Assembly: GCA_009602725.1 (NCBI GenBank)
Contig: WELB01000017.1
Coordinates: 875,208 to 906,910, forward strand
Length of the DNA: 31,703 nt
Source of the DNA: Spirogloea muscicola
Taxonomy: Eukaryota; Streptophyta; Zygnematophyceae; Spirogloeales; Spirogloeaceae
Direction: 5' to 3'
Shown in pieces: positions 1 through 31,703 of the stretch. The notes below the pieces were generated by a model. It searched no databases, was not told the DNA's origin, and was given only the letters and a program-made list of their open reading frames with translations. Positions within the stretch are counted from its first letter, which is position 1. Each line of letters opens with the position of its first letter. The position numbers and the translations under genes are program-made.

Positions 1-122
<122 letters not shown>

Positions 123-3980: not shown

Positions 3981-4177
3981 AGGATAAGAAGGAAGCGCGG
4001 CCAGATTGACTGGTGGCTGGGAAAGGCCAGCCCAAAAAGAATGGACAAAGTCTGAGGGAGCCTGAGTGCGAACGACTAGGACTAAGACATCAGCCAGGGA
4101 ACGCTGGAAAGCCAGCCCGAGAAAGATAGAACAAAGTACGAGAAGGGGGCCAGGGGAAGCGCTAAGAAAAACAAGCA
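3968..4177 (-). repeat. dispersed segment, copy G (3' flank of the retroelement, 5' flank of LIN37-like gene)
   Basis: Read on the minus strand, this begins about 26 bases after the retroelement stop codon (4203-4205) and runs into the LIN37-like start codon. It shares the blocks TGCTTGTTTTTCTT, GCTTCCCCTGGCCCCC, CGGGCTGGC and ATGGGCGAGCAC with copies A and C. The last block contains the start codon of the LIN37-like gene, so either the element brought the start context or the copies elsewhere carry a piece of this gene's leader. Confidence 0.55.
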
Positions 4178-4399
4178 CACAAACAAAGCAGCTACGAATC
4201 ACTCAGTAACCCCTGCTAAGCAGCCGCAGATCAGAGATGCTAGGCTCCTGGAAGTGGGTCTCCTGGCCAGAGCCAGAGGCAGCAGCGAGGGCTCTGCCGG
4301 CATGAAGGTGCAGCGCGCGGGCCATAGACCTCTGCAGCGAGACGGCCAGGCGCATGCGATACACTTGCGCCAGCGACCCGTCTGCAGGAAAGTCCACCG

Positions 4400-4888
4400 G
4401 CTCCCCATGGAAGCGACGGGCGATGGTATGGCAAGCGAGCTGGGTGAGCAGCTCGAGCCACCGAGCGCACAGCGCCCCATGGGTGTCAATTGCCAACGGG
4501 AAGAACTCGTCTTTCCGCGGATGGTCAGTGTACTTGAGTCTTTAGCCCGAGCGGCGCAGGCGACCGTATACCCAACCTTGGTGGCACATTGGGCTGGGTG
4601 TGAGCGGTTGCATGCGTCGGTGGTCACCACGTCCAGGAGAAGAAGTGGCCCGCCAGCCTGTGGGGTGGCCACTAGGTCGAGGCGACGGGCGTGGAGACCG
4701 TCGGCCCTTTCCTAGAGCGGCATGACGCCGGAGTGCTCCGCTGCCACCGAGAAGCCAGCCTCCACCAGGATGCCATGCATCGCATCACGGAGGCGGTCGT
4801 GGGCCGCTGTCCGCTCGCCGCCGTGGGCGCAGTGCAGGACATGAGCGGCCAGCTCACCGGACTCGGCCCCTCGCTCACCGCATACACA
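4400..4888 (-). other. CCHC motif and restriction-like endonuclease domain
   Basis: A CVC...HVLHC cluster at 4829-4888 is followed by GGERTAAHDRLRDAM, then (after TAG 4712-4714) RRLDLVATPQAGGPLLLLD, VVTTDACN and a downstream K/Y pair (ATKVGY). This matches the arrangement of the PD-(D/E)xK-like endonuclease of RLE non-LTR elements. The frameshift at about 4530-4545 falls just after the catalytic core. Confidence 0.75.
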
Positions 4889-5683
4889 CTGACGCACGCC
4901 CTGGAGACATGGAGGCGGCAGTCCCAAGAGCCGGTGGACGGCAGTGCGAAATGCCTCATCGGGGAGAGTGAGGGCGTCATTGATGGGGAGGGCCTGAAGC
5001 CACGCCGCTGCCCCCGGGAAGGAGGCCAACTGAAGTCTCGCGCTGTCGCGCAATTCGGCCTCGGGCAGCTGCAGCACGGCGGTGGTGTAGGCGGCCTTTT
5101 TGACCACGGCCGCGAAGCGCGCTTGGACGCGCAGGTCAGCGGTGTGCGCGAGGTGCGCAAAGGAGACCGCCTGGCCTGCCAGGTTCGGGTGCGCCGCGAG
5201 CAGCTCCTGGTGGACGGAGCGAAGCGACACCTGGAACGGCAACGCACCCATGTCGACCTACACCACCGCCTGCTCCAGTGCACGCCGGCCGTGGACCATG
5301 AAGCACTGGGCCACGGAGGCGGCAGTCTGCGCCCAGCTGCCGAGGTATGCAGCACGGCAAGAACGGGCGAGCGGACGCAGGCCGAGACCACCGTGGCTGA
5401 GGGGTAGCGCCGCCTGGTGGATAGCGGCCGGCGACTGGAGGAAGCCCTGGTGACGGATCAGGGCCGCCAAGCTCGCCACCATGCCTGCGTCAAAATCCGC
5501 GTACGCCGCCAACGCCCCTGGGGACGGCGGAGTGGCCCACGTCTAGTACTGGGGCCACTGCCCAATGGCCTTGGTCAACATGGCCAACGACAGCTGCATA
5601 TCGTCTAGATCGGGAAGCCGGGCCGCAGGTTGAAGATGCTCCGCAAGGCGGGCTCGCAGCTGCCCCTCCACGAAGCACGGCGC

Positions 5684-6397
5684 GCCGATGGGGACCCCCA
5701 GCAGGGTGAAGCCATCTGCTGGAGTCTGGCAGCCAGTGGGCAGCGTCAGGGTGGGTGGGAGGCCGCAGGGAGACCAAGCCCCGCACTTCGACGCCCGGGT
5801 GGACAGGCCAAGGGTGGCCAGCTGCAGCTCAAAGGTGATGAAGGCCGCCGCCACGTCTTCCGGAGGGCCGACTATGGTGGTGTCGTCCGCGAAGGAAGGG
5901 AGTAGGACTCCTGGGTGTGCCGCAGCAGTAGCCTGCAGAGCCCGGTGGTGAGCGAGCGCAAAGTAGAAGCCGGCGAGGGGGTCCCCTTGCCGCGTGCCCG
6001 CTTGGGACTGCAGGACCTCCACTTGATCCCCCCCTGTCCGCCAGAGGAGGTTGCTGGGCTGACCGTACCCCAAGCGAAAAACGGGTACCAGGGATGGGAA
6101 GGATGCCCGGAGCTCCTCTGCGATACTGGCGCGCTCCACAGTGTTGAAGGCATTCTTCACGTCAACGGCCAGCACCAGCCACCCCGGGTGCTGGTCCAAG
6201 GTCGCACGAACCCCATGGACGACGGCCTCGCCCCCACTCCGCAGCTCCGCGCCGTACTGGTGTGGCGCCATGTGCACCTGCGCCGGCCCCGCATGCTGCT
6301 GCCAGAGTACGCGGCTCACCAGGCGGTACAGGACCTCCCCAATGGCAATGGGCCTGACTTCCCCACTCGGCTTGTCGAGGGCGAGCAGCGTGCTGGT
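5684..6397 (-). other. reverse transcriptase domain of the retroelement
   Basis: Conserved blocks appear in order: LLALDKPSGEVRPIAIGEVLYR (written here as LLALDKPSGEVRP then IAIGEVLYR), LAVDVKNAFNTV with the first catalytic Asp, TRQGDPLAGFYF, SFADDTTIV with the two catalytic aspartates (codons about 5893-5882), LSTRASKCG and GFTLLGVPIG. All catalytic residues are present and the domain has no internal stop, so this part shows no decay. Confidence 0.92.
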
Positions 6398-7234
6398 GCA
6401 CAGTACGCCGCGGATGCTGGCCGGCACGTTGTCTCGGGCCATATGCTGGCAGATCTGCAGCAGCGCGTTGAAGTCTGTCGCCTCACCCTCGAGGAAGATC
6501 TCCAGCAGGTGCTCAGTTAGCATGCGGGAGGGGCTGCCGGTGGCTGCGCGATGGCTGGTCTGGAGAGCCTTCTTGAGGGCGTCGGCTTCCAAGACCACCT
6601 CCTCCGGCGGGGCGAACGCGGCCAACCACGGTGGCAGGGGGGAGCTGGACGGGGGGTGGAGGGAGTCCAGAGCCGCCTTGGTCGGCGCCAGCATCGCATC
6701 GTCCAGGGCCTGCACAGCCCGGGAGAGCTCGCCCGCGTGGCCGTAGCGAAGAGCCCTGCGGACGCTGGCGGCCCGGTCGTGTGTTGCCCCTCGGCCACCA
6801 CGGTTGGCTGCGGACGCCGCCACGGCTGCGTCGTGCCTCGCCAGGAGCTCCTCCCAGTGCCCGCTCTCGAACAACTGGACGCGTTCCAAGAGGGGCTGCT
6901 AGCCCTGCTTGCGGCTGTCGGGAGAGACCCGCCCGAGCAACAGCCGGGGGAAGAGGATGAACAACTTCCACGCCGCCTCGTCCCTGTGGTCGGCGACGAT
7001 CCGCTGCGTCACCGGGCGGAGCGCGCGGTGGAGGTGTGGGCGCGCCCAGCGCGGAACGTGGTGAAGGAGCGGCAGGGCCGCCTGGCGGTGAACTACGGCC
7101 AGGTCGAGGCCTGCCAGCCACTGCCAGTGGTGAGGCGTGGGCGGGGACGGCGCGGGAGGCCTGCCTGGTCTGCCCCGACGACCACCCGCTGCCGCTGCGC
7201 TCCGCGCCTGCTCCGCACGGTTGTTGTTGCACGT

Positions 7235-7300
7235 GCAAGTTCGCTGGTGGTTGGACCGGCCGGACCGCGTGGTGAAGGTCCTCTGGCAAAGCTGGCACCG
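7235..7300 (-). other. N-terminal zinc finger 2 of the retroelement, intact CCHC
   Basis: The minus strand encodes CQLCQRTFTTRSGRSNHQRT followed by Cys: C-x2-C-x12-H-x3-C with all four ligands. It is in frame with the reverse transcriptase. Fingers at this position bind the DNA target in RLE-type elements. Downstream, in the same frame, is the linker AAWKLFILFPRLLLGR typical of the region before the reverse transcriptase. Confidence 0.7.
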
Positions 7301-7712
7301 CGGCGGGTCGGGCGAGAGAGGTGGGGGCGACGGCGGTGGAGCCGGCTCGCTCGGCGGGGTTGGAGGCGGCGGAGGAGGGGGTGGCGTCAGTGGCGCCGAC
7401 TATGGAAGGCTGGGCGGCTCGAGAGGTGGGATGGCGGATGGTTGGGAAGGCGGCGTCGGGTGAGGTGGGGGGCGGTGGGGACGACGGCGGCTGTGGTGAC
7501 GACGGCTCGGCGGGCATGGTACCCTGAGGATGGAGGAGCGTGGTCACCTCGTGGGTCCCCTCGCATCTCAGGGGTGGAGGCGATAGAGTAGTGGCCTCCA
7601 TGGAATGCTCCGTGGTATGCTCCGCCTGAGTAGATGCCAGGGCCGGGACGATGGGGCTGCAAGCCGCGACGGCCGCTGCGGGTGGAGTTCCGGCGGGGCT
7701 GGCATGCCCCTC

Positions 7713-7775
7713 GCAGTGTCGCCGATGCACGGAGACCCCATGGGGAGTCGCGAAGTCCCGCGGGCGGGTGGGGCA
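7713..7775 (-). other. N-terminal zinc finger 1 of the retroelement, one ligand replaced
   Basis: The minus strand reads CPTRPRDFATPHGVSVHRRH followed by Cys, matching the C-x2-C-x12-H-x3-C spacing except that the second Cys is Arg (codon CGC; Cys would be TGC). A single T-to-C transition would explain it. The frame is that of the ATG at 7845-7847, not that of the reverse transcriptase. Confidence 0.5.
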
Positions 7776-7899
7776 CGGCGCGCGCGGGAGCTTCGCAGGC
7801 GAGGGTGGCGATGGCGGAAGAAGGGGGGGCTGCGGCGGAGGTGCCATAGAAGGCGGCGAGGGCGAGCAATCGGTGCGCCCTAGCCCTTAAAACCGCCCA

Positions 7900-7913
7900 C
7901 CGCCGCCGCCGCA

Positions 7914-7949
<36 letters not shown>

Positions 7950-7956
7950 GCCGCCG
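7900..7956. repeat. (GCC)n microsatellite in the divergent promoter
   Basis: A nearly perfect CCG/GCC triplet run with a few substitutions lies between the retroelement start (7847, minus) and the UPF0729 start codon (7993, plus). It is probably in the 5' untranslated region of UPF0729. Similar triplets sit next to every N or homopolymer artefact in this window. Confidence 0.85.

Positions 7957-26066: not shown

Positions 26067-31703
<5,637 letters not shown>

What the first reader, a model, noticed from the sequence alone, without database searches (positions are those of the whole stretch)
4712..6901. Retrotransposon frame interrupted four times, always by TAG
Over about 2.6 kb (7300-4712) one frame carries zinc finger 2, the complete reverse transcriptase, the CCHC motif and the start of the endonuclease. 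It has exactly four stops, all TAG (6899, 5543, 5258, 4712), no TAA or TGA, and no indel in that span. Ordinary decay of a GC-rich copy should give mixed stops (TGA from CGA by CpG deamination especially) plus frameshifts. Options: a young copy with CAG/TGG-derived nonsense changes; programmed TAG readthrough or a suppressor tRNA used by the element; or targeted C-to-T mutation. Host genes use TAG as a true terminator, so genome-wide reassignment is unlikely.
Basis: partly seen in the sequence, partly recalled or inferred. Interest (0 to 1): 0.72.

Follow-up and report, generated by a model that had tools for sequence, protein, structure and literature searches.

The report
Decayed R2-like retrotransposon copy
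This is a young but broken copy of a repeated jumping gene, probably in an alga; its four TAG stops look like chance mutations, because sister copies carry ordinary amino-acid codons at those places, so nothing points to special stop-codon reading.

Summary
The observation largely holds: the minus-strand frame from 7300 to 4712 has exactly four stops, all TAG. The unusual readings do not. Among the aligned sister copies (alignments from 38 loci) the codons are: at 6901 CAG 8 of 9, at 5545 TTG 31 of 35, at 5260 GAG 39 of 39, at 4714 CAG 43 of 46. Only 6901 is TAG in another copy (one, L027). The implied changes are C>T, T>A, G>T, C>T, so targeted C-to-T mutation does not fit. Other copies have stops of all three types (22 TAG, 7 TGA, 5 TAA) and many frameshifts. 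From the frame's codons and the observed mutation spectrum TAG should be about 72% of new stops, so four of four has probability about 0.27. Just past the chosen span this copy has its own one-base deletion near 4538, just before it a fifth TAG at 7402, and inside it a 12-base in-frame gap near 6677. Four of four fetched histone H3 genes end in TAG. No CUA tRNA was seen, in an incomplete search. Ordinary decay of an R2-like non-LTR retrotransposon copy.

The parts
4103..7880 (-). body of the retrotransposon copy that aligns to sister copies (read from high to low coordinates)
   Evidence: blastn against 38 other loci: the longest alignments start at window 7880-7879 (8 loci) and many end at 4103
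7235..7297 (-). zinc-finger-like motif (C..C, H, C)
   Evidence: sequence; label recalled, no Pfam match at E<=0.01
5690..6376 (-). reverse transcriptase domain
   Evidence: Pfam RVT_1, E=8.5e-17; two R2 proteins in PDB, E about 2e-5
4829..4888 (-). CCHC motif
   Evidence: sequence; label recalled, no Pfam match
4628..4687 (-). stretch resembling the restriction-like endonuclease motif of R2-type elements
   Evidence: sequence; label recalled; the same region of a sister copy gave no Pfam match and no PDB match better than E=0.89
6899..6901 (-). TAG; sisters CAG 8 of 9, TAG 1 of 9 (L027)
5543..5545 (-). TAG; sisters TTG 31 of 35, other sense codons 4
5258..5260 (-). TAG; sisters GAG 39 of 39
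4712..4714 (-). TAG; sisters CAG 43 of 46, CAT 1, gapped 2
6676..6678 (-). site of a 12-base in-frame gap in this copy relative to most sisters
   Evidence: 7 of 11 alignments have 12 extra bases, 2 have 11
4537..4539 (-). site of a one-base frameshifting deletion in this copy
   Evidence: 46 of 52 alignments have one extra base here; downstream the window's frame no longer reads like the sister frame in L016

Best explanation
A copy of a multi-copy R2-like non-LTR retrotransposon that, after insertion, was no longer kept as protein and picked up random point mutations and indels. The source elements carry one long frame with sense codons at these four places, read by the standard code. The four TAGs arose in this copy (6901 perhaps earlier, as one other copy has it). 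All four are TAG because this frame is rich in codons one step from TAG (CAG, GAG, TGG, TTG), so TAG is the likeliest new stop. Shown: sense codons at the sites in sister copies, mixed stops and frameshifts in other copies, TAG as terminator of H3 genes. Inferred: the time order and the loss of selection.
For: Sister codons at the four sites. 23 of 30 stop sites in the aligned copies, window included, are seen in one copy only. Stops of all three types in other copies: 22 TAG, 7 TGA, 5 TAA in 19809 codons; expected fractions 0.717, 0.194, 0.089; P(4 of 4 TAG)=0.265. The four changes are of three kinds, two of them transversions. One-base deletion near 4538 and a further TAG at 7402. A 68%-identical relative in L016 differs mainly at third positions (392 of 775, against 174 of 777 first and 146 of 779 second) with 261 synonymous to 105 nonsynonymous single-change codons, and has sense codons at the three sites it covers, so the frame was kept as protein in the wider family. 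H3 genes end in TAG, 4 of 4 fetched.
Against: No frameshifting gap in 858 codons where 4.6 are expected, P about 0.01, though the span was picked for that. Four stops where 1.47 are expected from the other copies, Poisson tail about 0.06 (worked by hand). The 6901 TAG is shared with L027, and six further stop sites are hit in two or three copies, two of these six with different stop codons. Private and shared variants differ only weakly in codon position (in the span, private changes in others 270, 328, 359 and shared variants 119, 92, 156 for positions one, two, three), so selection within this family is not clearly visible. The mutation spectrum used for the expectation includes the window copy's own changes (63 of the 1703 private changes), a small circularity.
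Confidence: 0.96

Rival explanations
1. Programmed readthrough of TAG, or a suppressor tRNA used by the element, lets the frame be translated despite the stops.
For: All four stops in the span are TAG and the span has no frameshift.
Against: TAG is not kept at the sites: 0 of 35, 0 of 39 and 0 of 46 sisters, and 1 of 9 at 6901. The same copy has a frameshift near 4538. None of the tRNA genes called by ARAGORN has a CUA anticodon, but that search is incomplete.
Confidence: 0.01
2. Targeted C-to-T mutation (RIP-like or deaminase-driven) made the stops.
For: C>T and G>A are the commonest private changes: 33 of 63 in this copy, 597 of 1640 in others.
Against: Two of the four stop changes are T>A and G>T. 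Transitions are only 783 of 1593 private changes, unlike the near-pure C:G to T:A spectrum of RIP (recalled).
Confidence: 0.02
3. Part of the stops are inherited: the copy, or its source, was copied (segmental duplication, or help in trans) after some TAGs arose.
For: 6901 TAG shared with L027; 7285 TAG shared by three copies; 6043 TAG, 5335 TGA and 4873 TGA by two each.
Against: Three of the window's four are in no other aligned copy. CAG>TAG is the likeliest stop change, and two shared sites carry different stops, so double hits do happen.
Confidence: 0.15

Closest known systems
R2-type non-LTR retrotransposons (restriction-like-endonuclease LINEs)
   Same: The RT matches two R2 proteins of known structure (9nl3, 9dou); one frame with zinc-finger-like motif, RT, CCHC and endonuclease-like stretch in that order (labels and R2 order recalled); alignments with many different 5' starts and a common 3' end.
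   Different: By eye the flanks differ from copy to copy, so no single insertion site such as 28S rDNA is seen; similarity to the R2 proteins in PDB is only about 27 bits.
Dead-on-arrival LINE copies with private nonsense mutations and indels (recalled)
   Same: Stops mostly in single copies, frameshifts, 5'-shortened copies.
   Different: Nothing found that sets this copy apart beyond chance, except a frameshift-free span noticed after the fact.

Membership tests
RLE-type (R2-superfamily) non-LTR retrotransposons | non-LTR reverse transcriptase related to R2 | tested here: met
   Pfam RVT_1 8.5e-17; the only PDB matches at E<=0.001 are two R2 proteins
RLE-type (R2-superfamily) non-LTR retrotransposons | C-terminal restriction-like endonuclease after a CCHC motif | tested here: inconclusive
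   motifs seen by eye; no Pfam match and no PDB match better than E=0.89 for this region of a sister copy
RLE-type (R2-superfamily) non-LTR retrotransposons | no LTRs, 5' shortening with a common 3' end | tested here: met
   many alignments end at element position 4898, with starts from 1121 to above 4800; LTRs were not searched for as such
R2 element proper | insertion at one fixed site of 28S rDNA | tested here: not met
   flanks printed for the copies vary (by eye; no rDNA comparison made); I therefore call it R2-like, not R2
programmed stop-codon readthrough | stop kept at the same site among copies | tested here: not met
suppressor tRNA or TAG reassignment | CUA-anticodon tRNA; TAG not used as terminator | tested here: inconclusive
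   TAG ends 4 of 4 fetched H3 genes, against reassignment; no CUA tRNA in 54 loci that cover the 60 tRNA matches, but only 63 of 3014 candidates were scored and one of two pattern searches did not complete
RIP-like targeted mutation | near-exclusive C:G to T:A change (recalled) | tested here: not met
   two of four stop changes are transversions; transitions 783 of 1593 private changes

The most novel reading that the evidence does not exclude
This copy was for a time constrained against frameshifts but not against TAG, for instance because TAG was read through at a low level, and the deletion near 4538 came later.
Probability: 0.01. Interest if true: 0.6.

Novelty: new member of a known kind. 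Interest (0 to 1): 0.06.

Why it matters
It explains an apparent TAG-only pattern as ordinary decay and gives a caution: in a GC-rich frame heavy in CAG, GAG, TGG and TTG, new stops are expected to be about 72% TAG, so a short run of TAG-only stops is weak evidence for recoding.

Tried and rejected
Readthrough, suppressor tRNA and targeted C-to-T were tested and rejected as told in the rivals. A loose T-loop pattern gave 1418 places, fewer than its reversed control (2860), and was useless. The first tRNA pattern gave three places: one is the tRNA-Arg (TCT) gene on C159 read out of register (compare), the other two loci hold no tRNA by ARAGORN. The second pattern was asked for and never answered. 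A RuBisCO large-subunit search found nothing, while chlorophyll a/b-binding proteins gave 68 matches; that the host is a photosynthetic alga is inferred from the latter, and the missing RuBisCO (often plastid-borne, recalled) speaks neither way for certain. Rfam found nothing in the window. Paper searches listed 0, 1, 1, 1 and 3 papers; I saw only the listings with the beginnings of abstracts, opened none, and rest no claim on them. No structure was predicted and no tree was built.

Rows dropped: the relatives at 66-69% identity (in L016 and L031) and alignments under 150 bases were left out; one search kept the relatives, which is why its totals are one higher per site (10, 36, 40, 47). Stops past the last TAG (below window 4712) were listed but not counted, since the window's own frameshift near 4538 spoils the register there. 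One search scored 40 of 1050 candidates and gave 41 matches, chosen by similarity to 4712-5300; the fetched regions cover them, the many other copies were not looked at.

Full report
The frame. On the minus strand the frame read from 7300 to 4712 has four stops, all TAG, with first bases at 6901, 5545, 5260 and 4714. It holds a zinc-finger-like motif, a reverse transcriptase (Pfam RVT_1, E=8.5e-17; two R2 proteins in PDB at about 2e-5), a CCHC motif and an endonuclease-like stretch (these last labels recalled). The description is accurate apart from 'no indel': there is a 12-base in-frame gap near 6677 relative to most sisters (7 of 11 alignments with 12 extra bases, 2 with 11).

The copies. 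A search of the window's own genome (153 Mb, 471 contigs) with bases 4712-5300 gave 41 matches, the window's own included, at 91-100% identity, with 40 of 1050 candidates scored. So this is a large repeat family and my sample is the part most similar to the window in that stretch. I fetched 39 regions, the window's own included, and aligned the element to them: 84 alignments of at least 150 bases and 80% identity, from 38 other loci. Some loci hold several pieces, so alignments are not all separate copies. The longest start at window 7880, most are shorter at the 5' side, and many end at 4103.

The four sites. In those alignments: site 6901 CAG 8, TAG 1, of 9; site 5545 TTG 31, other sense codons 4, of 35; site 5260 GAG 39 of 39; site 4714 CAG 43, CAT 1, gapped 2, of 46. 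Of the 30 flanking bases 27 to 29 match the window on average, so the sites are properly aligned. Site 6901 rests on few copies. The implied changes are C>T, T>A, G>T and C>T. The fifth TAG, at 7402, is CAG in 6 of 8, in a poorer alignment (26.8 of 30).

Stops elsewhere. The other copies have 34 stops in 19809 aligned codons of the window's frame between 7285 and 4712: 22 TAG, 7 TGA, 5 TAA. Of 30 stop sites, window included, 23 occur in one alignment only and 7 in two or three. Seventeen of 39 alignments with at least 200 codons, window included, have a stop. Frameshifting gaps are common: 104 in 19285 codons over 41 alignments.

Why only TAG. From the spectrum of private changes and the codons of the frame, new stops should be TAG 0.717, TGA 0.194, TAA 0.089; CAG>TAG alone is 0.354, GAG>TAG 0.140 and CGA>TGA 0.041. 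Four of four TAG has probability 0.265, five of five 0.190. The spectrum includes the window copy's own changes, a small part.

What remains odd. The span has no frameshift where 4.6 are expected (P about 0.01) and four stops where 1.47 are expected (Poisson tail about 0.06 by hand). The span was noticed for these very traits, and just past it the copy has a one-base deletion near 4538 (46 of 52 alignments have the base); on the 5' side of the span there are further gaps. I take it as chance plus choice of the span.

Code and tRNAs. Four of four fetched histone H3 loci, of five full-length histone matches, end with TAG directly after the C-terminus that I recall as canonical for H3; three have nearly the same ending, so they are not four independent cases. 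Of 60 tRNA matches (63 of 3014 candidates scored) I read 54 loci that cover them: no gene that ARAGORN called has a CUA anticodon; six loci gave no gene, one locus gave one gene for two matches, and one called gene had no full anticodon. Leucine and glutamate tRNAs are missing from that set, so it is no census. A pattern for CUA tRNAs beginning TGGC found none; its TAGC twin did not complete.

Selection on the source. A 68%-identical relative in L016 differs at 174 of 777, 146 of 779 and 392 of 775 sites of codon positions one, two and three, with 261 synonymous against 105 nonsynonymous single-change codons, so the frame was kept as protein in the wider family. It has sense codons at the three stop sites it covers (CGC, CTG, GAT), and a second relative in L031 has CAG at the fourth. 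Within the young family the signal is weak.

Verdict. A young, broken copy of an R2-like retrotransposon, probably in a photosynthetic alga (chlorophyll a/b-binding genes; RuBisCO large subunit not found), with random nonsense changes. Ordinary.

Noticed in passing
L020, L021, L030, L035, L037, L047 and others, 3' fragments ending at element position 4898: Many short fragments share only the last 60-250 bases of the element and its terminal GGGCTGG...CCAGCC hairpin with a common tail after it, often several per locus and in a second sequence variant; they could be SINE-like elements using the LINE tail, or strongly shortened copies.
   Followed up: no
window 7880-7956: The window copy stops matching longer sisters at 7880, next to a CCG repeat (7900-7956), while other long copies share further upstream sequence.
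   Followed up: partly
L016:3332-5861 and L031:167-765: Relatives at 66-69% identity to the window element, so at least one more subfamily in the same genome.
   Followed up: partly
window 7285 site in L027, L036, L042: Three of nine aligned sequences, window included, share a TAG inside the zinc-finger-like motif, perhaps an inherited stop in one sub-lineage.
   Followed up: no
window 26710-27273 minus: Open frame with Sel1 repeats (Pfam PF08238, E=2.9e-17), perhaps part of a host gene.
   Followed up: no
window 1-122: Run of 122 T at the window's start.
   Followed up: no
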